Below, piece by piece: positions 4,806 to 20,056 of a stretch of DNA of 50,398 nt (position 1 is its first letter; each line of letters opens with the position of its first letter). A program made the position numbers and the translations under genes. Source of the stretch: Nitrospira sp. (GTDB lineage: Bacteria > Nitrospirota > Nitrospiria > Nitrospirales > Nitrospiraceae). Below the pieces are notes generated by a model that was given only the letters and a program-made list of their open reading frames with translations, was not told the DNA's origin and did no database searches. The DNA is taken from positions 1-50,398 of the forward strand of contig SWDS01000008.1 of NCBI GenBank assembly GCA_005116745.1, written 5' to 3'.

Positions 4806-5168
4806 ACTCCTCCTCCACGTATAACGTCCTCTCACATCCTGCCCTCGCCAAGGGGACTGCCCCCTCGACACCTCATCGTTCGCATTGTACCGAGATCAGT
4901 CAGCGATACAACATTCTTCGGAGATTTCAGAATCTGGCCCATACAGCGCAAGCACTGGCTGTCCAATCAACGACCGTCTTGTACGTGCCGTTCCCCCAAT
5001 GCTGTTCCAAGTGAGAACAGTGACAACATTGTGGGTAGCATCACATGAGTTGATGTGGTAGCGTCACGAGTAACCCCACAACACAGTCTGGAGCTGATCG
5101 CTCACCGCTCGCATCTACCTGCGACCCGTTCCAGTCTATTCACCAACTACTTCTCACAGGAGGTGCCT

Positions 5169-5714
5169 ATGAGACGCCTATCTATATTTTCTGCACTCTG
5201 CGGTTGGAGCGCCATTCTGTTCCTGTCTGCGGCTTGTGTCTCAGCAGGAGGACCAAAGAAAGGAGCATCGGCCATGACAGTCTCGAACGGGAAACAAGTA
5301 TCGCTGGAATACACCATGAAGCTGGACGATCAGTCGGTCGTCGATTCAAACGTCGGCGGGGAACCCTTGAAGGTGACTCAAGGGAAACATGAGCTGGTTC
5401 CTGGCCTGGAGAAGGCGCTGGAAGGCATGGCGGCAGGAGAGAAAAAGAACGTCACCGTCGCTCCACCAGATGCGTACGGCACGGTCGATCCCAAGGCGTT
5501 TCAGGAGGTGGAAAGGAAGATGGTGCCGGCGGAAGCACAGAAGGTGGGGATGCAATTGGAAGGAACAACCACCGATGGACGGAAGGTCTTTCCTCGGATC
5601 TCCGAAGTCAAGAACGAGACCGTCGTGCTCGACTTCAACCATCCGTTGGCCGGCAAAACACTCTACGTCGAGGTCAAAGTGCTGGAGGTGGCCCAAGCCC
5701 CAGCGGCGAAGTGA
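5169..5714 (+). CDS. exported FKBP-type peptidyl-prolyl isomerase (SlyD-like)
   Basis: A 181-residue protein. A signal sequence (about residues 1-25, LFLSAACVSAGG) may be a lipoprotein signal, though the residue at -3 of the Cys is Ser, so SPI cleavage is as likely. The FKBP domain follows, with SlyD hallmarks: YTMKLDDQSVVDSNVGGEPL, LVPGLEKALEGMAAGEKK, VAPPDAYG, an inserted-in-flap region, and NHPLAGKTLYVEVKVLEV at the end. It would catalyse prolyl isomerisation and chaperone folding in the periplasm. The metal-binding His/Cys tail of E. coli SlyD is absent. CAGGAGGTG precedes the ATG at 5169; an upstream in-frame ATG at 5055 is not favoured. Confidence 0.88.
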   Translation: MRRLSIFSALCGWSAILFLSAACVSAGGPKKGASAMTVSNGKQVSLEYTMKLDDQSVVDSNVGGEPLKVTQGKHELVPGLEKALEGMAAGEKKNVTVAPPDAYGTVDPKAFQEVERKMVPAEAQKVGMQLEGTTTDGRKVFPRISEVKNETVVLDFNHPLAGKTLYVEVKVLEVAQAPAAK

Positions 5715-5778
5715 CGCTCCGTCTCTGGTGCGAGGTGGCCGTCACCTCGCACCAGAGGAGTCCAACAGTCAGCAGAAC

Positions 5779-7386
5779 TTACTGCGCCCCAGCACGAATC
5801 TTCTCACGCAGAGCGGCTAAAAACTTTCGGTCGTCCGGTGTCAGGTGCAAGCCCCGCTTGTCGATACGAGACAGGACCTCATAGGCCTGTTTCCAATAGG
5901 CGCCTGCTTCCTTGACAGCGTTGCGTTTCTCAGCCATATCGGCCAATCTCCAGTAGGAGACATACAGGTCCCGCTGCCACTGACTATTCCCCGCATCCCG
6001 CTTGGCGAGGGTCTCGGCGATGCCGAGGCTCGCGCGAAAGACTGTCAGCGCCGCCGGTAAATCGCCTTGCGCCACCAACACATCACCAATCCGGTCGTGG
6101 CTCACCGACAGGTCCCGCTGCCACTCGGTGTTGCTGGGATCTTTGTCCATAAGGCGCTGTGCGAGGCGGTGAGCTTCGTCGTACTCGCGTCGAGCATCGA
6201 CGAGTGTGGTCCTGACACGCGCGAGGTCTCCTTGATCCGCCAGAAACCAGAAGTACCTATGGAGGGCGTCCGGCCAATCGGGTTCAAGGGCCAGAATGTC
6301 GTTGTATAGAGCTCGGGCCTCTTTCGCCTGCCCTTTTGCCCCATGCAGCCCGGCGGTCTGGAGCAGTGGTTGGAGGTCGGCGCGATTGTGCTCGCGCGCT
6401 GCCTCAGCGCGGGTGCGAACGGTGTTGAAGATGGCCGCCTGCTGGGTCCCCATATAGACGATGGCTTCATCGACCCCCTGTTCAGTCAAAATGCGGGTCA
6501 TCTCCTGGAAGACGCTGGTGGCCTGGCTCTTCCCCTCGATCTCAGCAAAGGAGATGGCCAACTCCCCGATGCGGGACAGCCGAACACGATGTGCCTCGTC
6601 GGCAGCCTCACGCAAGCGCTGACGTGTCTTCCAATCGGTTGCGGCTTCGGCTTCGGCGAGCTCGCGCCGATGGGTTTCTTCCGTGGCCTGTTGCAGGTGG
6701 GCGCGGATTTTCTCCTCATTCACGACACCGACTTCTTGGACACCGTGCTGAAGCTGTTGGTAGCCCCACCAGCCTCCACCACCAAGCACCGTCAACCCGA
6801 ACAAGCTCGCCATCACTAACCTGGTGAGTCGACGCGCTCCCTGTTCGGCTCGTTCGCGCAACGCACTCAGCTCATCGCGCAGGCGAAGGACGATGTTGTC
6901 CAGCTCGGTGGGGGTATTCGCCGTATGGCGGAGGTGATTCTCCTGCTTGAGTTGTGCGAGGTAGTGCTGCTGAAGTGTGCGCCGTTCCGCTTGAAAGTCG
7001 ATGGGGTCGGGATGGCCTGGATCGCGAGGCAGGTCAAGTTGATCGGGCGGCTTGTCGCGCGGAAAGTCCTTGCCGATCACAATGATCCAGGTCTTTTTCT
7101 TCTGCTTGTGCGCGTAGAGGAATTCGAGCTGCGTGTAGGAGACACGGCCATACTCTGGATCGATGTCAGGCGGCTCGGCGCCATACCCGTCACCCACCAG
7201 CTGAATAAGACCCTCGCAGGAATCAAGCTGTTCGCGGAGCCACTGACGCAGCTCGCCATAGCCGGTGGGAAAATCGTCTTGAGACACGGGATCGAACCCA
7301 AGCGTGCGGAGGGTCCTGGCCACCGCCTGCCTGGCAGTCCGCAGTTCTTCACTCACGGTAGAGAGAAAGAGACGTGGTCGGTCCAT
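5779..7386 (-). CDS. DUF4062-TM-TPR membrane protein
   Basis: A 535-residue protein. Residues 1-110 form a DUF4062 domain (PRLFLSTVSEELRTARQAV, QLVGDGYGAEP, YTQLEFLYA), a Rossmann/TIR-like fold usually at the N-terminus of STAND or TPR proteins. A linker and one transmembrane helix (about 190-208, LVMASLFGLTVLGGGGWWGY) follow. Next is a charged coiled-coil stretch (about 215-300) and C-terminal TPR-like helices (about 340-520, with WQRDLSVSHDRIGDVLVAQGD and WQRDLYVSYWRLADMAEKR). No P-loop NTPase is present, unusual for the family. The N-terminal domain is predicted cytoplasmic with the TPRs across the membrane, but topology is not proven. It is the last gene of the leftward conflict-type island. 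Confidence 0.82.
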   Translation of the reverse strand: MDRPRLFLSTVSEELRTARQAVARTLRTLGFDPVSQDDFPTGYGELRQWLREQLDSCEGLIQLVGDGYGAEPPDIDPEYGRVSYTQLEFLYAHKQKKKTWIIVIGKDFPRDKPPDQLDLPRDPGHPDPIDFQAERRTLQQHYLAQLKQENHLRHTANTPTELDNIVLRLRDELSALRERAEQGARRLTRLVMASLFGLTVLGGGGWWGYQQLQHGVQEVGVVNEEKIRAHLQQATEETHRRELAEAEAATDWKTRQRLREAADEAHRVRLSRIGELAISFAEIEGKSQATSVFQEMTRILTEQGVDEAIVYMGTQQAAIFNTVRTRAEAAREHNRADLQPLLQTAGLHGAKGQAKEARALYNDILALEPDWPDALHRYFWFLADQGDLARVRTTLVDARREYDEAHRLAQRLMDKDPSNTEWQRDLSVSHDRIGDVLVAQGDLPAALTVFRASLGIAETLAKRDAGNSQWQRDLYVSYWRLADMAEKRNAVKEAGAYWKQAYEVLSRIDKRGLHLTPDDRKFLAALREKIRAGAQ

Positions 7387-7712
7387 TGACTATCAGCCGC
7401 TCCTCATCCATGCGCACCAATCAACGCGAGTCATTCGTGCCGTCCTGCTACGTAACCGACAGCTTATCCCGTCACAACTCGGAGCCGCTCTAACCCACAT
7501 GATTCACGACCGCTTCTGCTGCAACCGCCGATACGCTGCTGCGACAGGCCTGGCTGCGCTGTATCTGCAGCCAGGCAGGCAGGCTCGTCCTCGTGGCCTC
7601 ACCATACTGTTTCAAGTATGCATCGGTCTCTCAGGGCTCCGCGTGCCCGTCTCGCCCGGCGTCTTGGCGGTGTCGCCACGAACGGTCATGAATCATGCGG
7701 GCTAAGAGAGCC
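7387..7712. other. intergenic region with hairpin
   Basis: There is no convincing gene in these 326 bases. A perfect 10-base-pair hairpin (arms 7548-7557 and 7567-7576, nine-base loop) lies between the CHAT fusion gene and the DUF4062 gene. It lacks a T-run on either strand, so it may be an attenuator or simply a processed mRNA structure. Confidence 0.5.
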
Positions 7713-10700
7713 TCACGATTCCGGTTCAGCCGCTGAGTTCTTCCCTGACCGAACAATCAACTTCGCCGTGGCTTGGCCATAATGTTGATAGGCCCCCCAG
7801 GTCGCTCCCTGATCGAGAATCTTCTTTCGCGCCTTCGCCAGTGCGGCACCAAGATCAGCACCCGAGAGCGCCTCCTCATAGAACACGTTCGCAAACTCCA
7901 GCGCTGCGGCATCATCCACGGGCCAACCGGTACCGATGTAGTTCTGCACCCCCCGCTCAAAAAATGCTTGGGCCAGTCCGGCCAAGCTCCGATTGGATTC
8001 CTGCAGGGTAAAGGGCTTGCCGGTGCGAATCACGCCAGAGAAGCAGGCATTGGCAAAGACGAGACGCGGGACCCGCCGGGCGCGGAAGACATCTCGGGCC
8101 GACAGCATGTCGTCCTTGCCCAGCATCCATCCGCTCTTAGCGGGATGCGTTTCGTCGAAGTCGCCGTGCCCCGAGTAATGAATGAGGTCGAATTCTTCGC
8201 TTAGGATCAGCGCGAGGAGTTCGACGGGGTCACATTCATTCGCCCCGATGCGTGACTCGATCGTGATGTCGAGCCCCTGTGTCTCCTTCATGCGCCGGAG
8301 AATCTTCACCACGGCGCGCCCTTCCTCCCGTGCTCCCGGCAATTGCAAGTCAACCTCCGGCGCCGGATCCGCGATCACGAGGACACGCAGGCGGTTGGGG
8401 ATGGAGGCCGTGATGAGCCCCGGCGCACCGGACAACGTCGTGCGAAACTGGCGGGTCACGTGTCGTCCCGGCCCATAAAACACCGCCTGTCCGTGCCGCT
8501 CGAATGCCGCCATCTCCCAGGGAAACGCGGCCGTCGACCGGTCAACCATCAGCGTCAGCGGTGTCATGTCGATCATGCTTTGAAAGTCTTCCGGCATCAG
8601 ATACCGATGCAGCAGCTTCCCGTATTTCTCCTGGTCCTTCAGACTGCGCGCGTTCTTGAGCAAATCCGCGATGCCTTCCGCACGGGACGATTGCACGGGA
8701 ATTTCTCGGACCGGAATGACGGCGTCTTTCGTGATAGCCGAGAAGCGGAAGAGGTCACGGTCTCGCTCAATCGTCACGCGGCTCCCGTCCATCTGATCGA
8801 CCACCTCCGGCTGCGTTTTGGGCGTGGGGTGGACGCGCTTCGGCAGAGTCCTCGACGAGAGCTTCACGGTCAACGACCCGTCGCTCCCGGCGTTGATCTT
8901 CTTCAAGATCGTAAGGACCTCCTGAAAGCGGCGCTTGTCATACTCCACGATCTGGAGGGTGTCGAGGCGTCCTTGCCCCTTGAGCCGTCTGAGCGCAGAC
9001 GCCACCCCCTCCACCATGCCCTCGATGGCTTGCTCCAAGGAGAGATTCCCTGCTCCGGAGCCGATGACGACCGTGGCGAATGTGCGCCACCCCAATGCGG
9101 TCACGCCATAGGTGACATTCGCGAAGAGGAGATCCACGTCCTCCCGGTTGAAGCGCCCGGGCTCCCCCATCCCGGCGAGCATGACGTTGTCGGCGGCAAG
9201 GGTCTGATGGGTATTGGGAATGAGAAACACTTCCCCAAGCCCGCCGCCGATGATGCCTCGCTTCACGGCTTTGGAAATCCAGAACTCGAGCGCCTGGTCC
9301 AGCGCCCCAACGGCTCGGATCGGCGGCACCCCTCGATAGTGACCGGCCACTACCGCCGGCGCGTTGATATCCCGGATATCGCCGTGGACGACCTCAATAT
9401 GGAGTGTGATCGACGCGGGTGCCGGCCCCTGCGTCGTTTGCGTGGCAGTCGTGGCGTCGGTTACGGCCCGGGACCGAACAGGACGCTGCGTCATGACGGC
9501 TTCTCTGAGCAACGCTTCCGCTCGACGACGATCAGCCGCGCTGCTTCGCTCGGCCTTCGTCTCTTCCGCGATGCGGCGGATCTGCTCCGCATCGTGGCGA
9601 TCCTGAACGGCACGGACGCGGGCCGAGGTGAGTGCGCGAACAGCGCGGGCCGCAACCGGTTCCATCGCCAGCGCCCCGGTCTTGCCGGTACGCAAGATCT
9701 CATCCATCGCTGCGAGCACCTGCGCATGCTTCTGGAGATCACCGTGAATCTCATCGACATAGTAGGTCTGCACACCATCGAGCAGCCCAAGCGCGTGAGT
9801 GACACGCCCATCGCCCTTCAAGGTCATCTCAAACTCGAACAACCCTGGGCCATCAATCCTCACCGCACTCACGGTGTCTTGATTACAACCGGCGATATAG
9901 GTCATCCGCTCCGGATCGATAGTCCCCGGCACGTCGAGCGAGGCGTGGAACTCCTTTGCGCGTTGAAGATGAGCGGCCACGATCGGATAGCGCCCCCACG
10001 TACGACTGTCGTACAGACCTTGTTCCGAGGCTGGGAGTTTGGCGGGCGACGGAAGCAATTGATAACTCCCGACGAATCCGTTCAGGACATCGAGCACTTC
10101 ATCTAAATCATGCCGCAGATCCGCCGCCGCCAGCCACTTGACGAGCTTGTCCTTAGCCACCATCGCTTGCGCAATGGCATAGGAACCATAGTTCGGCGTG
10201 CCGAGCATGATGAGTCGCCCACCCTGCACCTTCTTCGGCTCCAACATGGCCTTCCAGAGTTTGGGATACCGCCGAATAAAATTCCGGGACACGAGGCCTC
10301 CCATGGAATGGGCCACGAGATGCACCGGTTGGTCTTTGAACTTGGTGTCCACCAAATTTTTCAACGCATCTGCGGCTTGATCGAGGTCTTTCCGCCAATC
10401 ATAGGCAAAGGGTTCCACGTTCCAGTAGGCCTTCAACCACAAAATCGTCTCGGCATAACTGTCCTTCTCAAGCCCGCTCGGCTGTACATGCAGGCGCGCA
10501 TCGGCTTCCCGCATGCCATCTTGTGCAAGCCGGAGTTTGTTGATTCCTCCCCAGATCAGTTTCAGAAAACTGATCCACACCGTGTCGTCATCGCCGTCTT
10601 CTGTCACCGTCAACTCGGAACCCATGATCCCGGGAATAAAAATGATATTGCCCCGCAGCGGCTCCCGCTTACTGCGCGCCGCTCGCGCCCGTTCCGCCAA

Positions 10701-10880
10701 CTGTTGAAGCCGCGCGAGCTTCTCGGGTTCGAAATGATCCCGCAAGGCCTGATCAGAGACCGCCCGTGTTTTCCCTCCGCGCGTCGAGCGAGAGAGCTGC
10801 GCTTCAAACTCGTCCCAAGCCATTTGGCGAACCACGCGATCGGAATCGTTCGGCTTTGAGCTTCTCTGTTTTCTGCTCAT
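7713..10880 (-). CDS. alpha/beta-hydrolase, M17-N-like, CHAT protease fusion
   Basis: A 1055-residue multidomain protein. Residues about 85-400 are an LCAT/PGAP1-like alpha/beta hydrolase: NIIFIPGIMGSEL opens it, the nucleophile elbow AHSMGG places Ser192, and KGDGRVTHALG probably supplies the Asp and His. A basic helical linker is followed (about 480-640) by a segment resembling the macro-like N-terminal domain of M17 aminopeptidases (VVHGDIRDINAPAVV, GGGLGEVFLIP). The C-terminal part (about 720-1040) is a CHAT caspase-like protease with His905 in HYSGHG and Cys946 in ANACFSG. Both enzymes appear catalytically intact. The ATG at 10880 has AAGGAGG nine bases upstream; an earlier in-frame start at 10925 would overlap the patatin gene. 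Substrates are unknown; membrane lipid attack plus proteolysis is inferred. Confidence 0.85.
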   Translation of the reverse strand: MSRKQRSSKPNDSDRVVRQMAWDEFEAQLSRSTRGGKTRAVSDQALRDHFEPEKLARLQQLAERARAARSKREPLRGNIIFIPGIMGSELTVTEDGDDDTVWISFLKLIWGGINKLRLAQDGMREADARLHVQPSGLEKDSYAETILWLKAYWNVEPFAYDWRKDLDQAADALKNLVDTKFKDQPVHLVAHSMGGLVSRNFIRRYPKLWKAMLEPKKVQGGRLIMLGTPNYGSYAIAQAMVAKDKLVKWLAAADLRHDLDEVLDVLNGFVGSYQLLPSPAKLPASEQGLYDSRTWGRYPIVAAHLQRAKEFHASLDVPGTIDPERMTYIAGCNQDTVSAVRIDGPGLFEFEMTLKGDGRVTHALGLLDGVQTYYVDEIHGDLQKHAQVLAAMDEILRTGKTGALAMEPVAARAVRALTSARVRAVQDRHDAEQIRRIAEETKAERSSAADRRRAEALLREAVMTQRPVRSRAVTDATTATQTTQGPAPASITLHIEVVHGDIRDINAPAVVAGHYRGVPPIRAVGALDQALEFWISKAVKRGIIGGGLGEVFLIPNTHQTLAADNVMLAGMGEPGRFNREDVDLLFANVTYGVTALGWRTFATVVIGSGAGNLSLEQAIEGMVEGVASALRRLKGQGRLDTLQIVEYDKRRFQEVLTILKKINAGSDGSLTVKLSSRTLPKRVHPTPKTQPEVVDQMDGSRVTIERDRDLFRFSAITKDAVIPVREIPVQSSRAEGIADLLKNARSLKDQEKYGKLLHRYLMPEDFQSMIDMTPLTLMVDRSTAAFPWEMAAFERHGQAVFYGPGRHVTRQFRTTLSGAPGLITASIPNRLRVLVIADPAPEVDLQLPGAREEGRAVVKILRRMKETQGLDITIESRIGANECDPVELLALILSEEFDLIHYSGHGDFDETHPAKSGWMLGKDDMLSARDVFRARRVPRLVFANACFSGVIRTGKPFTLQESNRSLAGLAQAFFERGVQNYIGTGWPVDDAAALEFANVFYEEALSGADLGAALAKARKKILDQGATWGAYQHYGQATAKLIVRSGKNSAAEPES

Positions 10881-10917
10881 AGATGAATCCCTCCTTGAGA
10901 GAATCTTGCAAGGTAGC

Positions 10918-12063
10918 CTACGCAAAGCCTTTGAAGTGCGCTGGGAGGACCTTGTGCTTCCCGATGGTCTTGCCGACTGTCTGCAAGTCTTCGATGTGAT
11001 CTGTTGAATCTAGCTGCTGGACATGTTTGGGCTCGATCTTCTCTAAACCCAAACTTTCCAACCCCTCCCTCGACAGCTCTGCGTTGTATCGCATGTAGGT
11101 GAAGAGCTTCGGAGACACCGGACCCGTCTTGCCAATCAGATCTCCCACTTCGCGGTCCAACTGGTCTCCGGCCAAACACCTTCCAAAGACGCGACACAAG
11201 AGATCCTGCTCATTCAATGCAGCAAACATGAGCGCCGAAGGAATTTTGGTCGCATTGTAAATGAGATTCACATCATCCTTCTCAAGCCCCTTATTGGCGT
11301 CAGGACTTGTGCCTGTTCCAACGGAGACGATGAGGAGCTGACCTTCACCTGCCGGCCACGTGAGATTGTACGGTTCTGCAGTTGCCATGATGAAGGCTTG
11401 GAAAGCCGGATTGTTATACGTCGTGATGCCTCCGTCGACAAAGACGAACCGATATTCTTTGGGTGTACCCGCAGCAAAGATCACCTCCTCTGGAGGAAAG
11501 AAGGTTGGCGCAGCCGTACTGGCTCGCACCAACTGCCAGAGCGGAATATCAAGATTGCAGTCTTTGCGATCGCGTGCATTGTACTTGGCCGTGGGATTGT
11601 TCCAAATGGGCCAAGGAGAATCCGTGTTCACATTCCGCATGACCATCATCAGTACTGTGCGCAGCTTTGCATCACCCAGTGTGACGTTTTCGCCAAATTC
11701 TTGCTTCAACTTCTTCGCGAGGCTCTCATCGGCATATTTGTTTTTCCATAGCCTCTCACCAAACCAAACCTTGTCGAACATATCCTTGCCGCTGCTCTTG
11801 TAGAACTCCCGAATCTTGTTCACCGGCATACCCAGAGATATGCACGCAGCGAGAATGGCACCCGTGCTGGTGCCGGCCACAAAGTCAAAGTAGTCTGCCA
11901 ACACGAAAGAATCGCGCTTGTCCTCAGGCTGAGCGGCACGAAGCACATCCTCAATCGCCGAGAGGATTTCGACCGTGATCATGCCTCGAATGCCGCCGCC
12001 GTCGAGCGCGAGAATTTTCTTTTGTCCTGAGCCCGTGATCCGTGGAATTAGATGCTGGCTCAT
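10918..12063 (-). CDS. patatin-like phospholipase
   Basis: A 381-residue protein with the complete patatin Ser-Asp dyad framework: oxyanion loop DGGGIRG (residues 21-27), nucleophile motif GTSTG with Ser66, and FVDGG near residue 215 carrying the catalytic Asp. No signal peptide is present, so it should act from the cytoplasm on membrane phospholipids. Patatins of this short type (CapV in CBASS is the best-known case) serve as membrane-degrading effectors in phage defence. No cyclic-nucleotide synthase is found in this window, so CBASS membership is not supported. A 37-base gap separates it from the CHAT fusion gene downstream and 65 bases from the TIR gene upstream, suggesting an operon. Confidence 0.92.
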   Translation of the reverse strand: MSQHLIPRITGSGQKKILALDGGGIRGMITVEILSAIEDVLRAAQPEDKRDSFVLADYFDFVAGTSTGAILAACISLGMPVNKIREFYKSSGKDMFDKVWFGERLWKNKYADESLAKKLKQEFGENVTLGDAKLRTVLMMVMRNVNTDSPWPIWNNPTAKYNARDRKDCNLDIPLWQLVRASTAAPTFFPPEEVIFAAGTPKEYRFVFVDGGITTYNNPAFQAFIMATAEPYNLTWPAGEGQLLIVSVGTGTSPDANKGLEKDDVNLIYNATKIPSALMFAALNEQDLLCRVFGRCLAGDQLDREVGDLIGKTGPVSPKLFTYMRYNAELSREGLESLGLEKIEPKHVQQLDSTDHIEDLQTVGKTIGKHKVLPAHFKGFA

Positions 12064-12128
12064 GTTTCCTCCTTATTCAGCTCGTTCGCGAGAAGCCCTC
12101 ATGGGATGGTGGCCTGAAATGTTCCCCT

Positions 12129-13415
12129 TCATACTCGGCACCCGTGATGATCAAACGCTGAGAGGATCTTTGCCCGCTCTTCAGGTGATGCGTTTAGCGC
12201 TTCGAGAATGACGATGGCCTGCGCCTTTGTAGACTGGTGATTGCCATGAGCCTCTGGCTCAATCGAGATGGCCTCGGAATACAATCTGGCGGCATTGTCA
12301 TAGGTCGCCAGTAATAGTTGAGTTTCGGCCACTGTCGCAGTTTTCCAATAATCTTGGTCGACCGGCTTTACCCCGACAAGTCCCTCTACCTGCTTGGCCA
12401 ATTGAGCAGCCACATCCCGTTCGCCGAGAATTAGACTTTTTGAAGCAGCGTTGATGCCGGTGTAGTAGCTTTGGGGGGCGGCAGTAAATGCTTGTCGGTA
12501 AAGAGCTCTGGACTTTCTCAGGTGACCGCGGTCTTGGGAAACTCTGTACCGATCCATCCATGTACGGGCATAGATGCCGAGCGTTTCCGGATCGAGTTGC
12601 CCACTCGCATGCAACTCACCCAGAACGGTTTGCGCGCCTTCCCAGTCCTTACTGCGTGCCAGCGCCAGCCCCTCAAGCTGTTTTGGATGAATAGCGCGTG
12701 GAAACTGGTGTTGTAGCTTTTTCAGCAGTCTGAGCGCGGCTGCGTTATCACCGAGTCCAATCATCGCATCAGCCACCTCACACCCCAAGGCCGGTGTTGT
12801 CTGCCAAGCTAGTCCGTTGGACTGGCTGAGCGTTTCAAGCCTGTTTAGAAATCCATTTGTGCGCGCGGCCTTGACTTGCGCACGCGCTGTCTTGAGCTCC
12901 TCATCCACCTCGACGGCAAGCTGGACTGCCGCTGGTGGCAATGGTTCGTCATGAATTCCGTAGAGCATACGCAGCAATCCGCTCCCACTCGGGCCATCGC
13001 GATCTTGCGAGAAATCAACATGGATCTTGCCGGACGCTAAATCCGGCAATGGTGACTCGTCCACTTTTGCAATCACATAGCGGAAGCCTGTCTTGTTTTT
13101 TTCTTTTTGTTCTAATGTGTTGTATTCCTCCATGCACCACTCTGAATCCTCAAATGCTGATGACCAAATCAAAATGGCGGCCCGGCTAGCCGCGAGCGCC
13201 TCGCCGAGGCTGAACGCCAGCGGTGAGGCGGCTGCAAGTTTGTATTGGTCCAAGAACGCTTCATAGTTAAGACCACGAAGAATGTCGTAGAGCTGCAACG
13301 CCCACGCCCGGTTAGTTGATCGATAGCTGAGAAACACATGGAACTTCTTCTTCGAGTCAAGGGGCTTGGGTGCCGGTGCGTACTTGAGCCATTGTTCTAG
13401 GGCGGGACTAGACAT
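12129..13415 (-). CDS. TIR domain protein with TRAFs-binding-like TPR region
   Basis: A 428-residue protein. Residues 23-150 are a TIR domain: FHVFLSYRSTNRAWAL, then IWSSAFEDSEWCMEEYNTL, in which Glu97 of the WCxxE motif is the expected NADase residue. From about residue 200 the protein is helical repeats. The YYTGINAASKSLILGE motif and flanking helices match the TRAFs-binding/DUF4071 domain known from animal ASK kinases and from bacterial conflict proteins. It may sense or scaffold through the repeats and deplete or cyclise NAD with TIR; this is inference. AAGGAGG precedes the ATG at 13415. A GC-rich hairpin separates it from the metacaspase gene upstream. Confidence 0.88.
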   Translation of the reverse strand: MSSPALEQWLKYAPAPKPLDSKKKFHVFLSYRSTNRAWALQLYDILRGLNYEAFLDQYKLAAASPLAFSLGEALAASRAAILIWSSAFEDSEWCMEEYNTLEQKEKNKTGFRYVIAKVDESPLPDLASGKIHVDFSQDRDGPSGSGLLRMLYGIHDEPLPPAAVQLAVEVDEELKTARAQVKAARTNGFLNRLETLSQSNGLAWQTTPALGCEVADAMIGLGDNAAALRLLKKLQHQFPRAIHPKQLEGLALARSKDWEGAQTVLGELHASGQLDPETLGIYARTWMDRYRVSQDRGHLRKSRALYRQAFTAAPQSYYTGINAASKSLILGERDVAAQLAKQVEGLVGVKPVDQDYWKTATVAETQLLLATYDNAARLYSEAISIEPEAHGNHQSTKAQAIVILEALNASPEERAKILSAFDHHGCRV

Positions 13416-13475
13416 GATGGTCCTCCTTCATGACGGCCTACATTCGAGAACTGCGATAACAACCAGTCGAGAGGT

Positions 13476-13499
13476 CCCGGCGGCTGTGAAGCCGCCGGG
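13476..13499 (-). terminator. GC hairpin between metacaspase and TIR genes
   Basis: Nine-base-pair arms CCCGGCGGC and GCCGCCGGG with a six-base loop lie 11 bases after the metacaspase stop and about 60 bases before the TIR gene start. No T-run follows in the transcribed direction. It may be an attenuator or an RNA-processing site inside the operon rather than a full terminator. Confidence 0.5.
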
Positions 13500-13510
13500 G
13501 GTCTGAATTG

Positions 13511-14347
13511 CTAACTGAGGAACGGACGATCGAAGGAAGTCTTTTGCCCTTCCAGCTGAGGAACCTGGTCAAAGTCCTCCGCCTTGAGTTTTGCTGTGGT
13601 CCGCTGGTGCAACTCTCGATAGGTCAGTTGGCCCTCTGCCTCTGTGATCGACTCGACGAGGTAATAGGTCAGCGCTCCATTATAGGTCCCACCAATGTAG
13701 GCATCGGCAGAGGTCTGCGTATCGCGACAGCCTGTGATCAACATCTCTTGAATGTCGGCATGGACGATATCTTGCTTCCTCTTGCGCCCACGAGGCGCCT
13801 TGCCCAACTGACCACGTACGGTTCCACGCAACTTTCGACCGGACTCGGTCGCCATGAGATCGAGCGGACACGGAAGGAACCGCTCTCTAATGGGCGCATC
13901 CGGCGGAGTGATGGCACGAGTGATGGAACCGGAGTGGCAACAGTCCATGATCACCGTGAGGCTGACTCCCTTTCGAAGCCTATTGAACGTCTTCCGAAGC
14001 CAATCGTCGCGCAGGGTATCCTTCCAATCCAGATCGGTTGGGCACAGGATCTCATCACGGTGATCCGCCTCATCCCCATTGTCGTCGGGTACGTTCGACC
14101 CATGCCCCGAATAGTGGAGGAGCAGGACATCGCCCTTCTTCCCGCTCTTGATGAGCTTCTGAATCGCCGCCTGCATGGCCTTCTTCGTCGCCTTCAAGTC
14201 GGTGAGAGTCGTGATGTCCTTGTCCTGGAAGCCGTAGTAGGTGTTCAACACTCCACTCAGATTCTTCACGTCATTGACGCATCCATTCAGATCTGAGCCG
14301 GGAACCTGATATTTGTTGATCCCAATGAGCACCGCGCGTTTGGCCAT
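13511..14347 (-). CDS. caspase family (C14) metacaspase-like protease
   Basis: A 278-residue protein that is almost entirely a p20-type caspase-fold domain. It begins MAKRAVLIGINKYQ, has the catalytic His82 in HYSGHGS and the catalytic Cys137 in the DCCHSGS motif, and carries acidic loop residues (DEADHRDEILCPTD) like the P1-Arg/Lys pocket of type I metacaspases. No prodomain or signal peptide is present. Arginine/lysine-directed cleavage is expected from the family, not shown. AAAAAGGAGGG precedes the ATG. Placed next to TIR, patatin and CHAT genes, it is a plausible executioner or activating protease of the island. Confidence 0.92.
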   Translation of the reverse strand: MAKRAVLIGINKYQVPGSDLNGCVNDVKNLSGVLNTYYGFQDKDITTLTDLKATKKAMQAAIQKLIKSGKKGDVLLLHYSGHGSNVPDDNGDEADHRDEILCPTDLDWKDTLRDDWLRKTFNRLRKGVSLTVIMDCCHSGSITRAITPPDAPIRERFLPCPLDLMATESGRKLRGTVRGQLGKAPRGRKRKQDIVHADIQEMLITGCRDTQTSADAYIGGTYNGALTYYLVESITEAEGQLTYRELHQRTTAKLKAEDFDQVPQLEGQKTSFDRPFLS

Positions 14348-14680
14348 TTCACCCTCCTTTTTGGTCCTGTCATGAAGTCTCTATCCTCGGCTATCTTCCT
14401 TCCCCTCCAATCCATAAGCTCCAGACAGACAGGGACGAAACCCGAAGTACGTGTCCACGTATGGCCTGAGCAAACATCTTGCCAATCCGAATGACGAAGC
14501 GGGTATCGCACGATCTCAACCCTAGGTTGGACTACGCGCGAAAGAATACAGGATTTGAATGTTTTCGAATAGCTACAGTAAGGCAGCGAAGGATTCTGTG
14601 GGTATGGTACGTGACTGCCGGTGAATCTAAACCGATACAGTGCTGTATCGAAACAGGTACAGGCTGCTGATTCCCTCCGC
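14348..14680. promoter_or_regulatory. upstream region of metacaspase gene with palindrome
   Basis: These 333 bases hold no convincing gene. An 18-base perfect palindromic element (CGATACAG-TG-CTGTATCG, 14633-14650) lies about 285 bases upstream of the metacaspase start and 30 bases beyond the SLOG-like gene stop. Its symmetry suits a dimeric repressor. A promoter for the leftward genes could not be assigned with confidence. Confidence 0.45.
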
Positions 14681-15271
14681 TTAGAGAGTTCTGGTGTCGA
14701 TCCAGATCACCTGGCCGGTCCGGCGCTTCACTTCTTGATACATATGTGCAGTCCCACCCGGTCCGTCGCCACCGCCACCGTCCCAGAGACAGACGAATTG
14801 CAGCTTATCAGCTCCATAAGAAAGAGCGGTCTCGAAGAGCCAGAGGTTGCATCGCTCATAGGGATCGTTCCCTGTGGGCAGCGGGCCAAGATCTTGTGGA
14901 GCGGAGCGAATCTCAGTGGTGAGCTTCGCTTTGGCCGCGAGATACCGCGCGCGCCAGGTTTCACTGTGACACACAACCGACTTCTGAATGAATTCAGACT
15001 CATCAAACGGTTGCAGCCATTGCACCTTCACCCCTCGCTGCTGACAGGCATCAGTGAAGAGCAGATCGCCTCCACAAGCCCCTTGGGTGAGGGCAAGATC
15101 CTCCGGGCCGGCACTGAGTTGCTCTAATGCCTCCGCAATTTTTCGTGCAGCGGCCGGTTCTTTGGTGGCGGGGAACCGCGGCTTCGGCCTCGTCGGTGCA
15201 TCGATCATGTGCCCACTGAAGAGGAAGACGTGCCTTGGCCATCCCTGGTTATCAGGCTCATTCGAAACCAT
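14681..15271 (-). CDS. Rossmann/SLOG-like protein of unknown function
   Basis: A roughly 196-residue soluble protein. It has FLFSGHMIDAP near the start, a Gly-rich QGACGGDLLFTDAC segment, a QWLQPFDESEFIQKSV strand-helix and a C-terminal LQFVCLWDGGGGDGPGGTAHM loop. The GACGGDLLF pattern is shared with Rossmann-fold domains of the SLOG/LOG-deoxyribosyltransferase type that accompany adenylate cyclases and TRAFs-binding proteins. Nucleotide-ligand sensing or base-sugar cleavage is inferred. I chose the ATG at 15271; a TTG at 15310 extends the frame. It sits directly upstream of the metacaspase and TIR genes, so it may be the sensor component. Confidence 0.6.
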   Translation of the reverse strand: MVSNEPDNQGWPRHVFLFSGHMIDAPTRPKPRFPATKEPAAARKIAEALEQLSAGPEDLALTQGACGGDLLFTDACQQRGVKVQWLQPFDESEFIQKSVVCHSETWRARYLAAKAKLTTEIRSAPQDLGPLPTGNDPYERCNLWLFETALSYGADKLQFVCLWDGGGGDGPGGTAHMYQEVKRRTGQVIWIDTRTL

Positions 15272-15320
15272 GAGGCCTTGAGCTTCTCCCTTGTGAGTTG
15301 GACAAGTCAACCATGCCGCA

Positions 15321-15560
15321 TCACGTTGTGGAAGGGATCCGGTCCTCTTCCTTTTTGTCTTTCGCGACCTGCGTCATGTAGCGATCAACCTCTTCACGGC
15401 TGAGTTCCTCAACTCGTGTGGCAAAATCCGGATAGGCCTGACTATGCGTCATATTGACGTAGGGTCCACCCAACTGAAGAAACTGCCAGCCTTCGCTCTT
15501 GAGCGACTCGGTCATTCGTCGATAGTGCCGCCATCGCTCGCCATATCCAGAGCACATCAT
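15321..15560 (-). CDS. small unrecognised ORF, probably a truncated gene
   Basis: A 79-residue frame, rich in charged residues and Tyr (GWQFLQLGGPYVNMTH, then REEVDRYMTQVAKDKKEED). I do not recognise a family. There is no ribosome site before the first ATG, and the codons just upstream belong, in another frame, to an O-methyltransferase remnant. The visible part is therefore probably the C-terminal piece of a gene whose start was lost at a recombination joint. It ends 50 bases before the SLOG-like gene. Confidence 0.35.
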   Translation of the reverse strand: MMCSGYGERWRHYRRMTESLKSEGWQFLQLGGPYVNMTHSQAYPDFATRVEELSREEVDRYMTQVAKDKKEEDRIPSTT

Positions 15561-15612
15561 CGATTAAGATGACACCGTTCGGTGCCAGCAAATCGAGCGA
15601 ACGCGATGTCGA
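15547..15612 (-). pseudogene. O-methyltransferase gene remnant
   Basis: Read on the minus strand, this stretch encodes RSLDLLAPNGVILIDDVLW, nearly the same as ALDLLAPNGVILIDNVLW in the intact O-methyltransferase gene at 19314-19955. The DNA is also clearly similar over about 55 bases. Similarity stops abruptly on both sides, with a short indel upstream. It is a scar of a second copy or of a local recombination event. Confidence 0.75.
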
Positions 15613-15686
15613 TACCTGCTGACGTCGTGCCTCAGAACCTTGCGATGATTGTCATGAGTTTAAAACATCGCTTGGTACGGCCAAGC

Positions 15687-18600
15687 TCATCGCCTGCGGC
15701 TCTTCAGCTGCTCGAAATTGTCACAGCCTTTTTTAGTTTCGAGATCGCACGCCTTCCTGTAAAGCTTGAGGGCTTCAGCGTTGTCATGTCTGACCCCCTT
15801 CCCTTTGCTATACATGACGCCGAGATTGTTACAGCCTTGCCCATCCCCGCTACCGCAGGCTTTCCGGAAAAGGGCGACCGCTTGTTCGATATTGGGAGAG
15901 ACCCCGATCCCATTTTCATACATCCCGCCAAGATTGACGCAGCCTCGCACATGCCCGCCATCACAAGCTTTCCGGAAAAGGGCAACCGCTTGCCCGACAT
16001 CGGGGGTGACGCCGATCCCATTTTCATACATCACGCCGAGATTGGAGCAACCTCCCACATACCCGCCATCACAGGCTTTCCGATAGAAGGCAACTGCTTG
16101 CCCAACGTCTGCTTGGACCCCACGCCCCTCCGCATACATCCCGCCGAGATTGGAGCAGCCGAGCGGCTCCCCCCCGTCACAAGCTTTCCGGAATAGGGTG
16201 ACCGCTTGCCCGGCGTCTGATTGAACCCCGCGTCCCTCCATATACCTCGTGCCGAGCGTGACGCAGCCAAGTGCGAAGTCGGCGTCACAGGCTTTCCGAT
16301 AGAAGGCAACTGCTTGCCCGACGTCTGCTTGGACCCCACGCCCCTCAGCATACCTCGCCCCGAGCATGAAGCAGCCTTGCCCATCCCTGCCATCACAGCC
16401 TTGCCGATAGAAGGCGACCGCTTGCGTATCATCAGCTGGGACCCCACGCCTCAGCGCGTACATCCCGCCGAGACTGGAGCAGCCTCTCGCATACCCGCTA
16501 TCACAGGCTTTACCATAGAACACGACCGCTTGCCTGTCGTCTTGCGCAATCCCGCGCCCCTCCGCATACCTCGTGCCCAACGTGAAGCAGCCTTGCCCAT
16601 CCCCGCCGTCACAGGCTTTCCGATAGAAGGCAACCGCTTGCGTATCATCAGCTGGGACCCCGCGCCCCTCCGCATACATCCCGCCGAGAGTGGAGCAGCC
16701 GAGCGGCTCCCCCCCGTCACAAGCTTTCCGGAACAGGGTGACGGCTTGCCCGACGTCTGATTGAACCCCACGCCCCTCCACATACCTCGTGCCGAGCGCG
16801 ACGCAGCCGAGTGCGAAGTCGGCGTCACAGGCTTTCCGATAGAGGTCGACTGCTTGCTTGTCATCAGCTGGGACCCCGCGCCCTTCCGCATACATCCCGC
16901 CGAGAGTGGAGCAGCCTTGTACATTCCCGCCATCACAGGCTTTCCGGAACAGGACAACGGCTTGCTCGTCGTCTGGTGGGACCCCGCGTCCCTCCACATA
17001 CCTCGTGCCGAGCGTGAAGCAGCCTGCCGCATCTCCGCCATCACAGGCTTTCCGAAAAAGGGCGATGGCTTGCTGGTCGTCTCGTGGGACCCCACGCCCC
17101 TCCGCATACCTCACGCCAAGCGTGAAGCAGCCTCCCGCACCTCCGCCATCACAGGCTTTCCGAAAAAGGGCGATGGCTTGCTGGTCGTCTCGTGGAACCC
17201 CGCGCCCCTCCGCATACATCCCGCCGAGAGTGGAGCAGCTTTGTACATTCCCACCATCACAGGCTTTCTGGAACAGGGCGACGGCTTGCCGGTCGTCTCG
17301 TGGAACCCCGCGCCCCTCCGCATACAACCTGCCGAGATTGAAGCAGCCTTGCACGTTCCCGCCGTCACAATCTTTCCGATAGAAGGCAACGGCTTGCCGG
17401 TCCTCCCGTGGAACCCCGCGCCCCTCCGCATACAACCCACCGAGATTGGAGCAGCCTTGCACGTTCCCGCCGTCACAAGCTTTCCGGAACAGGGCAACGG
17501 CTTGCTCGGCGTCTGGGGAAACCCCGCGTCCTTCCGCATACCTTGTGCCGAGCGTGAAGCAGGCTGCCGCATCTCCGCCATCACAGGCTTTCCGATTGAA
17601 GGCGACCGCTTGCTTGTCATCAGCTGGGACCCCGCGCCCCTCCGCATACATCCCGCCGAGCGTGGAGCAGCCTTGTACATTCCCGCTATCACAGGCTTTC
17701 CGGAATAGGACAACGGCTTGCCCGTCGTCTGGTGGGACTCCGCGCCCCTCCGCATACCGCGCGCCGAGCGTGAAGCAACCTCCCGCATCCCCCCCGTCAC
17801 AGGCTTTCCGGAACAGGACAACAGCTTGCCCGTCGTCCGGCGGGACTCCGCGCCCCTCCGCATACCGCGCGCCGAGCGTGAAGCAGGCTCGCCCATGCCC
17901 ACCATCACAGGCTTTCCGGTAGAACACCGCCGCTTGCCTGGCGTCTTGTGGGACCCCGCGCCCCTCCGCATACATCACGCCAAGATTGTTACAGGCTCGC
18001 CCATGCCCGCCATCGCAGGCTTTCCGGTAGAACGCCGCCGCTTGCCTGGACTCTTGCTGAACCCCAGCCGCCGCCGCATACCTCTCGCCGAGTGTGAAGC
18101 AGCCTCGCACATGCCCGCTATCACAGGCTTTCCGATAGAAGACGCCGGCTCGCCGGTCGTCCTGTGAAACCCCGCGTCCCTCCGCATACCGTGCGCCGAG
18201 CGTGAAGCAACCTCCCGCATCCCCCCCGTCACAGGCTTTCCGGAAAAGGGCGATGGCTTGCCTGTCATCTTGTGGAACCCCGTGCCCCTTCGCATACCGC
18301 GCGCCGAGATTGAAGCAGGCTCGCCCATGACCGCCATCACAGGCTTTCTGGTAGAAGGCAACGGCTTGCACATCGTCTTGTGGTACTCCATGTCCTTCCG
18401 CATACCGCGCGCCGGGAGCAGCGCACCCGAGCGCAAAGTTGGCATCACAGGCTTTCCGATAGAAGGCGAGGGCTTGCTCCGCATCTTGTGGAACACCGTG
18501 CCCCTGCGCATACCGCGCACCGAGCGTGAAGCAGCCTTGCCCATCTCCGCCATCACAGGCCTTCCGATAGAAGGCGAGGGCTTGCTCGGCATCTTGTGGA

Positions 18601-18812
18601 ACGCCGATCCCATTTTCATACATCACGCCGAGACTGAAGCAGCCTCCCACATACCCACCATCGCACGCTTCCCGGTAAAACGCTTCGGCTTGACTAGGGT
18701 CTTGTGGCCCCCCCTCTCCTTCCAAATGCGGGGCACCAAGTTCGTGACCTGCTGCCGGTAAAACCAACACGCTAATAACTATGAGCGCGTAAAACAGCAA
18801 CCGGCGAGTCAT
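15687..18812 (-). CDS. secreted SEL1-repeat protein with 28 cysteine-paired repeats
   Basis: A 1041-residue protein. After a signal peptide (about residues 1-22, LIVISVLVLPAAG) it is built from 28 consecutive 36-residue SEL1-like repeats with the core FRKACDGGxxxGCxxLGxMYAEGRGV. Nearly every repeat has two Cys seven or eight residues apart, the pattern of Helicobacter Hcp proteins in which each repeat is stapled by a disulfide; this fits an oxidising periplasmic or external location. It should form a long superhelical scaffold for protein binding. The ATG at 18812 has TTGGAGG upstream; an earlier start at 18890 would add 26 residues ahead of the signal. It is the first gene of the leftward island but could also be an independent unit. 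Repeats are highly alike at DNA level. Confidence 0.9.
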   Translation of the reverse strand: MTRRLLFYALIVISVLVLPAAGHELGAPHLEGEGGPQDPSQAEAFYREACDGGYVGGCFSLGVMYENGIGVPQDAEQALAFYRKACDGGDGQGCFTLGARYAQGHGVPQDAEQALAFYRKACDANFALGCAAPGARYAEGHGVPQDDVQAVAFYQKACDGGHGRACFNLGARYAKGHGVPQDDRQAIALFRKACDGGDAGGCFTLGARYAEGRGVSQDDRRAGVFYRKACDSGHVRGCFTLGERYAAAAGVQQESRQAAAFYRKACDGGHGRACNNLGVMYAEGRGVPQDARQAAVFYRKACDGGHGRACFTLGARYAEGRGVPPDDGQAVVLFRKACDGGDAGGCFTLGARYAEGRGVPPDDGQAVVLFRKACDSGNVQGCSTLGGMYAEGRGVPADDKQAVAFNRKACDGGDAAACFTLGTRYAEGRGVSPDAEQAVALFRKACDGGNVQGCSNLGGLYAEGRGVPREDRQAVAFYRKDCDGGNVQGCFNLGRLYAEGRGVPRDDRQAVALFQKACDGGNVQSCSTLGGMYAEGRGVPRDDQQAIALFRKACDGGGAGGCFTLGVRYAEGRGVPRDDQQAIALFRKACDGGDAAGCFTLGTRYVEGRGVPPDDEQAVVLFRKACDGGNVQGCSTLGGMYAEGRGVPADDKQAVDLYRKACDADFALGCVALGTRYVEGRGVQSDVGQAVTLFRKACDGGEPLGCSTLGGMYAEGRGVPADDTQAVAFYRKACDGGDGQGCFTLGTRYAEGRGIAQDDRQAVVFYGKACDSGYARGCSSLGGMYALRRGVPADDTQAVAFYRQGCDGRDGQGCFMLGARYAEGRGVQADVGQAVAFYRKACDADFALGCVTLGTRYMEGRGVQSDAGQAVTLFRKACDGGEPLGCSNLGGMYAEGRGVQADVGQAVAFYRKACDGGYVGGCSNLGVMYENGIGVTPDVGQAVALFRKACDGGHVRGCVNLGGMYENGIGVSPNIEQAVALFRKACGSGDGQGCNNLGVMYSKGKGVRHDNAEALKLYRKACDLETKKGCDNFEQLKSRRR
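15720..18707 (-). repeat. tandem 108-base repeat array (SEL1 coding)
   Basis: About 28 tandem units of 108 bases make up the SEL1 gene. Adjacent and distant units share long near-identical blocks (for example the segments around 16080-16300 and 16620-16840), indicating recent unequal crossing-over or gene conversion. Unit number is likely to vary between strains. The array also keeps long open frames on the opposite strand, which are compositional artefacts. Confidence 0.85.
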
Positions 18813-18890
18813 CACGGATCCTCCAAGAAAAAACAAGCTTGCTGCGAGGTGGAAGTCTAGCGTACAGGACAAGATAAGAACAAGTCGCAA

Positions 18891-19313
18891 TCAGTAAGCA
18901 GTAATCAGGAAATTCTCCAGTTTATTCCATCTAGCCGATACGTCGCGTCATGCCGCACAACCAGCTCCAGCGAAAGCGGAATACACTGAGGAAGCTTCTG
19001 CTCATTTCCCAGGAAGTGGAGGATCGTGTCATCACTCAGGGACGGGCGAAGGATTACTGCAGTAGGGAAGAGTGGCCCTATAGACTAGATCTGTCTACCG
19101 GAATGCCACCATCGCATAACGCATAGGATGAAAGAAGATTACGGTTGGTATGTACATGAGAGTGCCACGCCTAAACCATATCTATCGAAAAGGTTAATCT
19201 ACCCTGAATCATGACTGAGCGATCGCTCAGTCAGCGCGACAGGAAGAATGTCACCCACTTAAGGCCACTTGGAAAGACACGGGAAGCACCGGGTGGCCCA
19301 TGCGAGTAGAATC
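18891..19313. promoter_or_regulatory. intergenic region with 22-base palindrome
   Basis: There is no convincing gene in these 423 bases. A perfect 22-base palindrome lies at 19212-19233 (half-site TGACTGAGCGA). Its size and TGA...TCA edges resemble operators of TetR-family repressors, but no such regulator is encoded in the window. It lies about 80 bases beyond the stop of the O-methyltransferase gene and 400 bases upstream of the SEL1 gene. Confidence 0.6.
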
Positions 19314-19955: not shown

Positions 19956-20056
19956 TAGAATTCCCTTGGATGATTTGAAAAACGCGCCGCCCGTTGCGTA
20001 CACTGCGACGATCGAATCACGGACGCGAATCTTAGCACAGTGACCTGGAGGCCGAA

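What the first reader, a model, noticed from the sequence alone, without database searches (positions are those of the whole stretch)
7713..10880. Lipase-like hydrolase, M17-N-like domain and CHAT protease in one chain
Seen: Ser192 in AHSMGG, His905 and Cys946 in CHAT motifs, and a macro/M17-N-like segment in between. Inference: CHAT could release or activate the hydrolase by cleavage, or the metacaspase could cut the linkers, giving protease-triggered lipid attack as in gasdermin-like logic but with an enzyme. A proform of this kind would be new.
Basis: partly seen in the sequence, partly recalled or inferred. Interest (0 to 1): 0.8.

Follow-up and report, generated by a model that had tools for sequence, protein, structure and literature searches.

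The report
Lipase, sensor-like and protease fusion protein
One bacterial protein chain joins a lipid-cutting enzyme, a probable small-molecule sensor and a protein-cutting enzyme; relatives occur in many bacterial groups, often near a caspase-like gene, so it may be a regulated self-destruction or anti-virus effector, which can now be tested.

Summary
Observation confirmed. Minus-strand ORF 10880..7713 (1055 aa) joins an LCAT/lysosomal-PLA2-like lipase (Ser192-Asp357-His379), a Peptidase_M17_N/macro-like domain and a CHAT protease (His905, Cys946). A deep-alignment AlphaFold2 model (mean pLDDT 88.6) matches LPLA2 (Z 30.9), leucine aminopeptidase N-domain (19.3) and separase (24.0). The triad is invariant in 80 of 80 lipase rows, the His-Cys pair in 69 of 69 CHAT rows.

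It is not a one-off. In 86 loci M17N-CHAT is constant while the N-terminus varies: lipase (34), DUF7379 hydrolase + lipase (42), no lipase (9), TIR+SLOG (1). A caspase-type gene lies within 6 kb on the same strand in 33 of 86. In Nitrospira the operon sits in a hotspot with swapped cargo.

A test of basic linker sites lacked power. I favour a conflict effector in which M17N senses a ligand, perhaps NAD-derived, and switches CHAT and lipase allosterically. Ligand, CHAT substrate and anti-virus role are inferred.

The parts
7713..10880 (-). Full gene: LCAT-like lipase + M17N/macro-like + CHAT protease, 1055 aa
9675..10658 (-). Lipase domain, residues 75-402, LPLA2/LCAT fold (Z 30.9, 2.7 A over 305 residues to 4x97)
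   Evidence: Pfam LCAT
10305..10307 (-). Ser192, presumed nucleophile in AHSMGG
   Evidence: 80 of 80 rows
9810..9812 (-). Asp357, presumed triad acid (GDG)
   Evidence: 80 of 80 rows
9744..9746 (-). His379, presumed triad base (HG)
   Evidence: 80 of 80 rows
9417..9674 (-). Linker 1, residues 403-488; predicted helices 420-442 and 448-463; pLDDT under 50 at 412-416 and 465-485
   Evidence: conservation
8880..9416 (-). M17N/macro-like domain, residues 489-667 (Z 19.3, 2.2 A over 172 residues to P. aeruginosa leucine aminopeptidase; macro domains also matched)
8793..8879 (-). Linker 2 core, residues 668-696 (boundaries my choice); holds candidate basic site K681-R682
   Evidence: cleavage not shown
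7749..8792 (-). CHAT protease domain and its N-terminal strands, residues 697-1044 (boundary my choice); separase and Csx29 matches
8166..8168 (-). His905 of CHAT
   Evidence: 69 of 69 rows
8043..8045 (-). Cys946 of CHAT
   Evidence: 69 of 69 rows
10918..12063 (-). Patatin-like phospholipase, 381 aa; ends 37 bases upstream of the lipase-CHAT ATG
   Evidence: Pfam 92.7 bits; CBASS_lipase 125.8 bits, below its cut-off of 200; gap
12129..13415 (-). TIR + TPR-S protein, 428 aa
   Evidence: Pfam TIR_2 66.7 and TPR-S 64 bits
13511..14347 (-). C14 caspase / metacaspase-like, 278 aa, with SGHG (His82) and DCCHSG motifs (meaning of motifs recalled)
   Evidence: Pfam Peptidase_C14 121.7 bits
14681..15310 (-). 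SLOG-like protein, 209 aa; the label is recalled and rests on a sub-threshold match of a 49% relative
   Evidence: no match itself; relative L055: YAcAr 21.7 bits against 28.2
5779..7386 (-). DUF4062 + TPR protein, 535 aa, downstream; membership in the unit uncertain (326-base gap)
   Evidence: Pfam DUF4062 48.6 bits

Best explanation
This is a single-chain conflict (anti-virus or self-destruction) effector. Its core is M17N-CHAT: a macro-like domain that probably binds a small nucleotide-type ligand, joined to a cysteine protease of the separase/Csx29 kind. The N-terminal LCAT/LPLA2-like lipase is a plug-in output that would cut membrane phospholipids. Most likely the ligand switches the protein by conformational change or clustering, turning on the protease, which cuts a protein in trans, and the lipase, without needing linker cleavage. 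In this window the TIR-TPR-S protein, perhaps with the SLOG-like and DUF4062 proteins, is the likely maker or handler of an NAD-derived signal, and the metacaspase and patatin are parallel outputs. Shown here by computation: domains, conserved active-site residues, wide occurrence, N-terminal swaps, caspase linkage, hotspot location. Inferred: ligand binding, switching, substrates, anti-virus role.
For: Folds: LPLA2/LCAT/Tle4 for 75-402, leucine aminopeptidase N-domain and macro domains for 489-667, separase and Csx29 for the CHAT part (viral macro proteins). Active-site residues 80 of 80 and 69 of 69. M17N-CHAT stays while the N-terminus changes: 34 compact, 42 long (DUF7379 + lipase; 41 of 42 with C-terminal TPR-S, L023 runs off its contig), 9 without a lipase in the chain, 1 with TIR + SLOG cluster2. 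Six lipase-less Nitrospira proteins nest inside the long clade. Within 6 kb on the same strand: caspase-type gene 33 of 86 loci, any of caspase/TIR/NDT/SLOG/DUF4062/patatin/TPR-S 43 of 86 (recognised by my own profiles, Pfam checked on a few). SIR2-type genes lie next to two compact relatives: L280 (Pfam SIR2_2) and a Rhizobium plasmid gene (annotation). An Azotobacter plasmid copy of the long type lies by restriction genes and a recombinase. Patchy presence, partial matches included: 33 of 79 genomes of the window's genus, 26 of 399 in the order of the Thauera record, 11 of 347 and 20 of 294 in the phyla of L037 and L056 (at most two candidates per genome scored in 49-51). Precedents: macro ThsA domains bind ADPR and oligomerise (PMC11204291, abstract); TIR-made N7-cADPR activates a caspase-like protease (PMC12847820, passages).
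Against: No ligand or activity was tested. The presumed pocket is only partly kept: Asp501 in 39 of 69 rows, Gly611 in 29 of 69, though Gly607 is 68 of 69 and Asp528 66 of 69. 43 of 86 loci show none of the partner families, 21 of them compact; a TIR neighbour is seen in only 16 of 86. Short contigs make these lower bounds. Of ten neighbours of stand-alone compact genes scanned (10 of 24 listed, mechanical ORFs), one is clearly defence-like (SIR2), one radical-SAM protein matches viperin models at 51 bits but looks otherwise metabolic, four have no Pfam match and four are metabolic or peptidase-like. No phage-defence effect is known. Relative placement of the domains is uncertain (pTM 0.68; no coordinates or error matrix).
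Confidence: 0.43

Rival explanations
1. Proform model: CHAT in cis, or the metacaspase in trans, cuts a linker and frees the lipase, which then attacks membranes.
For: Part of linker 1 is predicted disordered (465-485). At K681-R682, KR stands in the window and in 7 of 8 further rows of the caspase-linked clade, and not at that column in 8 rows outside it; 10 of 11 close orthologues have KR. Linker 2 of compact proteins is richer in basic residues where a caspase is near (0.194 against 0.136 per residue). A caspase-type gene often lies directly upstream, as in the published caspase-nuclease pair (PMC12799240). A lipase-only gene sits next to a C14 caspase in Anaerolinea thermolimosa (L061).
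Against: Linkers are less conserved than domains. The basic pair follows one clade, so it is not independent evidence; L276 has KK there and L041 a KR a few residues on. Ten independent pairs gave no signal, but with little power. Lipase-less relatives keep CHAT, 6 of 9 with the caspase, and 23 of 34 compact proteins have no caspase nearby.
Confidence: 0.22
2. Protease cascade: activated CHAT cuts and activates the neighbouring metacaspase (or the reverse), and the lipase is a parallel output.
For: Caspase-type gene within 6 kb in 33 of 86 loci, in all three main architectures, including 6 of 9 lipase-less ones. CHAT proteases commonly cut products of nearby genes (PMC9729208, passage). SAVED-CHAT activating a caspase is recalled, not read here.
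Against: The caspase stands with no CHAT gene next to it in five Nitrospira loci (L175, L177, L186, L187, L188) and with patatin and DUF4062 genes but no CHAT gene in L178. CHAT stands without it in 53 of 86 loci as far as the fetched stretches go.
Confidence: 0.2
3. Ordinary lipid or stress housekeeping enzyme; the immune-like setting in Nitrospira is secondary.
For: A 30%-identical Nitrospira group (L018-L022) has no caspase nearby and neighbours that look like housekeeping by eye (not scanned), although all five genomes carry the caspase elsewhere. Most of ten scanned neighbours of stand-alone genes are not defence genes.
Against: Patchy distribution, plasmid copies, swapped N-termini, a hotspot with alternative cargo, and TIR, caspase and patatin partners.
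Confidence: 0.1

Closest known systems
Csx29 (TPR-CHAT) of Craspase
   Same: CHAT protease fold with His-Cys pair (Z up to 21.6); regulated bacterial immune protease
   Different: No N-terminal TPR here; carries its own lipase and M17N; long relatives have a C-terminal TPR-S; a Cas7-11 partner was not searched for
SAVED-CHAT of type III CRISPR
   Same: Ligand-sensor domain fused to CHAT (8tl0 matched)
   Different: Sensor candidate is macro-like M17N, not SAVED; an added lipase; no CRISPR family among the 7 window proteins scanned
Lysosomal phospholipase A2 / LCAT / T6SS effector Tle4
   Same: Lipase fold (Z 30.9, 28.0, 25.9) and conserved Ser, Asp, His
   Different: Those are secreted or injected (recalled); here it is one domain of a chain with M17N and a protease; no signal-peptide search was made
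Macro-domain (TM-macro) Thoeris
   Same: TIR enzyme in the operon plus a macro-type domain coupled to a possible membrane-damaging output
   Different: Output is a lipase and a protease rather than transmembrane helices; M17N is a leucine-aminopeptidase-type macro relative
Type IV Thoeris (TIR + caspase)
   Same: TIR and caspase-like genes in one operon in the window
   Different: Extra lipase-M17N-CHAT, patatin, SLOG-like and DUF4062 genes; signal not known
Canu and Hachiman/AVAST protease-activated nucleases
   Same: Caspase-type gene upstream of an effector enzyme
   Different: Effector is a lipase with its own protease, not a metallo-beta-lactamase nuclease; no gating insertion shown
Bacterial gasdermin + protease operons
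   Same: Protease next to a possibly membrane-attacking protein
   Different: No gasdermin domain found; membrane attack would be enzymatic

Membership tests
CHAT protease (PF12770) | Pfam CHAT above curated cut-off | tested here: met
   109.6 bits against 24
CHAT protease (PF12770) | Conserved His-Cys pair | tested here: met
   69 of 69 rows
CHAT protease (PF12770) | Protein-cutting activity | not testable with these tools
   needs an assay
LCAT/LPLA2-like lipase | Fold | tested here: met
   Z 30.9, 2.7 A, 305 residues to 4x97
LCAT/LPLA2-like lipase | Ser, Asp and His of the triad present | tested here: met
   80 of 80 rows each; geometry not measured
LCAT/LPLA2-like lipase | Phospholipase activity | not testable with these tools
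   needs an assay
Peptidase_M17_N / macro-like | Pfam and fold match | tested here: met
   31.3 bits against 23.4; Z 19.3; macro domains
Peptidase_M17_N / macro-like | Binding of ADP-ribose or a relative | not testable with these tools
   presumed pocket only partly conserved
M17 leucine aminopeptidase | C-terminal M17 metallopeptidase domain | tested here: not met
   no such Pfam match; CHAT follows M17N
Gasdermin system | Gasdermin domain in the candidate protein | tested here: not met
   no gasdermin family; the three domains are lipase, M17N, CHAT
Type IV Thoeris | TIR gene and caspase-like gene in one operon | tested here: met
   operon inferred from spacing and strand
Type IV Thoeris | Curated Thoeris model above cut-off | tested here: inconclusive
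   TIR protein: ThcB4 (type III) 41.8 bits against 220, ThsB 28.7 bits; caspase: caspase_w_EACC1 64.7 against 140, PADLOC caspase 74.6 bits; no type IV model among the hits
Type IV Thoeris | Caspase activated by N7-cADPR | not testable with these tools
   needs biochemistry
Canu | Metallo-beta-lactamase pro-nuclease partner | tested here: not met
   none among 7 window proteins scanned
Craspase | N-terminal TPR before CHAT | tested here: not met
   lipase and M17N precede CHAT
Craspase | Cas7-11 gene nearby | not tested
   no dedicated search

The most novel reading that the evidence does not exclude
A widespread, unnamed immune family in which a macro-like M17N domain reads a TIR- or SIR2-type NAD-derived signal and switches on, in the same chain, both a caspase-clan protease that starts a cascade with the neighbouring metacaspase and a phospholipase that breaks the cell's own membrane: a one-protein sensor, protease and lipase with a swappable output.
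Probability: 0.25. Interest if true: 0.85.

Novelty: new variant of a known kind. Interest (0 to 1): 0.6.

Why it matters
It adds a recurrent architecture, seen in records of at least seven phyla (placement of titles in phyla is my knowledge), to the proteins built around caspase-like proteases, and names M17N, best known from leucine aminopeptidases, as a candidate immune sensor. It makes a question testable: do bacteria couple proteolysis and enzymatic membrane attack in one switchable molecule, as animals couple caspases to membrane rupture? The lipase-less, TIR-fused and split natural variants are ready-made controls.

Tried and rejected
The first structure job (10-row alignment) was poor, mean pLDDT 41.9, and was not used. 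A search of phage records with the protein found nothing. For the protein itself PADLOC lists only BovA (CHAT part, 30.8 bits) and NCBIfam only matches far below cut-off. Gasdermin membership was rejected on domains. Literature: ten searches; one search was wasted on a too-common word. None of the titles and abstract openings listed, and no passage I read, described the lipase-M17N-CHAT architecture. Subscription papers, including a recalled 2015 paper on nucleotide-centric systems that I believe introduced TPR-S, were not readable, so an earlier mention cannot be excluded.

Rows dropped before counts: conservation used 86 of 145 references. The tree and partner counts used 86 loci after leaving out small-flank copies, known duplicates (L033, L034, L035, L042, L268) and CHAT pieces under 200 aa (which removed L263). 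The 86 still include close relatives, one identical pair (L184, L185) and the fragment L032, counted as lipase-less although a lipase ORF of the same broken gene lies beside it. L057 is counted as compact but carries a TPR-S and starts at a contig edge. Labels MCA, TIR, NDT, SLOG, TPRS, PAT are my profiles seeded from these loci; NDT rests on a sub-threshold Pfam match (17.0 bits against 28.8).

Full report
Observation. The finding lies on the minus strand. Pfam gives LCAT, Peptidase_M17_N and CHAT above their cut-offs. The gene order, all minus, is SLOG-like, C14 caspase, TIR-TPR-S, patatin, this gene, then a DUF4062-TPR gene; gaps are 333, 95, 65, 37 and 326 bases. The SLOG label is weak: the window protein has no match, while a 49%-identical relative has a sub-threshold match to a YpsA-related SLOG family. 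The genus is taken as Nitrospira because contigs of same-genus genomes reappear under that title (for example G004:C113 and L034, both 34,211 bases).

Structure. A first model from 10 sequences failed. A second, from 86 rows, reached mean pLDDT 88.6 and pTM 0.68, with pLDDT under 50 at 1-8, 412-416, 465-485 and 820-822. Against solved structures, residues 75-402 match human lysosomal phospholipase A2 (Z 30.9, 2.7 A, 305 residues), LCAT (28.0) and Tle4 (25.9); residues 489-667 match leucine aminopeptidase (19.3, 2.2 A, 172 residues); the C-terminal part matches separase (24.0, 3.4 A, 304 residues) and TPR-CHAT/Csx29 (21.6). Foldseek also lists macro domains such as macroH2A1.1 and Af1521, and viral macro proteins. 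No M17 metallopeptidase domain is found, so this is not an aminopeptidase. Residue-level geometry could not be measured.

Conservation. In alignment A3 Ser192, Asp357 and His379 are kept in 80 of 80 lipase rows and His905 and Cys946 in 69 of 69 CHAT rows. M17N keeps Gly607 (68 of 69), Gly513 (65) and Asp528 (66), while Asp501 (39) and Gly611 (29) vary. Both enzymes therefore look functional; the sensor role is an inference from fold.

Family. One scan of named genomes kept 80 loci, with more matches beyond its limit. Fused lipase-M17N-CHAT proteins come from records titled Nitrospira, Bryobacterales and Acidobacteria, Desulfobacterales, several Gamma- and Betaproteobacteria, Dokdonia, Acidimicrobiia and Ilumatobacter, and Planctomycetota. 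Presence is patchy: 33 of 79 genomes of the genus at E 1e-10; at E 1e-25, 26 of 399 genomes in the order of Thauera, 11 of 347 in the phylum of L037 and 20 of 294 in that of L056, partial matches included. In plasmids 22 records match, two over 80% of the length; phages none.

Architecture swaps. Among 86 loci: 34 compact (lipase-M17N-CHAT), 42 long (DUF7379 hydrolase-lipase-M17N-CHAT, 41 with a C-terminal TPR-S, the other cut by its contig end), 9 without a lipase in the chain and 1 TIR-SLOG cluster2-M17N-CHAT. In the last, M17N was found by my profile (69 bits), not by Pfam at 0.01, and TIR_2 scores 26.3 bits against a cut-off of 28. On a quick CHAT tree the architecture needs at least 7 changes against a shuffled mean of 34.8; six lipase-less Nitrospira proteins sit inside the long clade, which suggests loss of both hydrolases. 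In L109 a lipase gene and a CHAT gene overlap as separate ORFs, and in L030 one ORF lies between them. So M17N-CHAT is the constant unit of this set and the lipase is replaceable; the set was found partly with lipase motifs, so lipase-less forms are under-sampled.

Context. A caspase-type gene lies within 6 kb on the same strand in 11 of 34 compact, 16 of 42 long and 6 of 9 lipase-less loci; 43 of 86 have at least one of caspase, TIR, NDT, SLOG, DUF4062, patatin or TPR-S partners and 43 have none; TIR is seen in 16 of 86. Chance is unlikely for the caspase: 79 genomes of the genus held 45 matches at E 1e-10, and eight other genomes, partly chosen for having it, held 8 at E 1e-8, so I estimate under 1% by chance. 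In the genus the caspase locus is a hotspot between an M32-carboxypeptidase-like/methyltransferase-like side and an FKBP-like gene (these three names are my reading of the sequences). On 23 contigs with both flanks within 25 kb, the caspase (82% identity or more) lies between them in 15; in three of the other eight (G102, G067, G003) the flanks are 1.0 to 1.3 kb apart (read). The cargo beside the caspase varies: compact, long, lipase-less, patatin, or nothing.

In 11 close orthologues the linkers are less conserved than the domains (0.67 and 0.64 against 0.84, 0.78 and 0.85). K681-R682 is a candidate site: KR in the window, L013, L015, L033, L036, L172, L182 and L184, KQ in L016; not KR at that column in L018, L020, L037, L038, L040, L041, L276 and L277, but these groups are clades. 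Linker 2 of compact proteins has more dibasic pairs where a caspase is near (2.82 against 1.67 per 100), long proteins do not (1.53 and 1.53); ten independent pairs show no link, with too little power to decide. Lipase-less relatives keep CHAT, six of nine with the caspase. The proform is therefore possible but not shown.

Mechanism. I favour ligand-driven switching. Csx29 CHAT is opened allosterically (PMC9729208, passages). Macro ThsA domains bind ADPR and oligomerise (PMC11204291, abstract). TIR signals can activate a caspase-like protease (PMC12847820, passages), and DUF4062 proteins are reported as TIR-like NADases (PMC13174449, start of abstract, passages). In VMAP-type vWA-MoxR systems a caspase domain is reported always to come with a neighbouring alpha/beta-hydrolase gene (PMC7159879, passages). 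SIR2-type genes border two compact relatives. Against this, half of the loci lack such partners, and the scanned neighbours of stand-alone genes are mostly not defence genes.

Novelty. Each domain is known. My ten literature searches listed no description of the fused family or its hotspot, but subscription papers were out of reach. I rate it a new variant of a known kind.

Noticed in passing
window 5055-21589: Chromosomal hotspot: 15 of 23 contigs of the genus with both flanks carry the caspase locus between them, three have flanks only 1.0-1.3 kb apart, five have wider spacing whose content was not examined.
   Followed up: partly
window 15687-18890, minus: A Sel1-repeat protein with 26 Sel1 stretches in the same hotspot, upstream of the SLOG-like gene.
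   Followed up: no
L282:6871-10548, minus: Fusion of TIR-like, SLOG cluster2, M17N (my profile) and CHAT, 1225 aa, from the phylum sample around L056.
   Followed up: partly
L024:2079-4064; L172, L180, L184: Fusions of an NDT-like domain (weak label), TPR-S and the SLOG-like domain upstream of the caspase.
   Followed up: no
L294 (Azotobacter plasmid), L295 (Rhizobium plasmid): A long-type copy beside restriction genes and a recombinase, and a compact copy beside a SIR2 gene and an endonuclease gene.
   Followed up: partly
L061:9965-12049: Anaerolinea thermolimosa: stand-alone lipase directly followed by a C14 caspase, without M17N or CHAT in that chain.
   Followed up: partly
L032, L173, L022, L052 and the G085 copy: Copies that look broken or split (frame breaks or stops) in some assemblies; real decay or assembly error not told apart.
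   Followed up: no
L026:3840-4616, L027:178-954, L173:95-871: A conserved 258-aa gene of unknown function follows the lipase-less M17N-CHAT-TPR-S gene.
   Followed up: no
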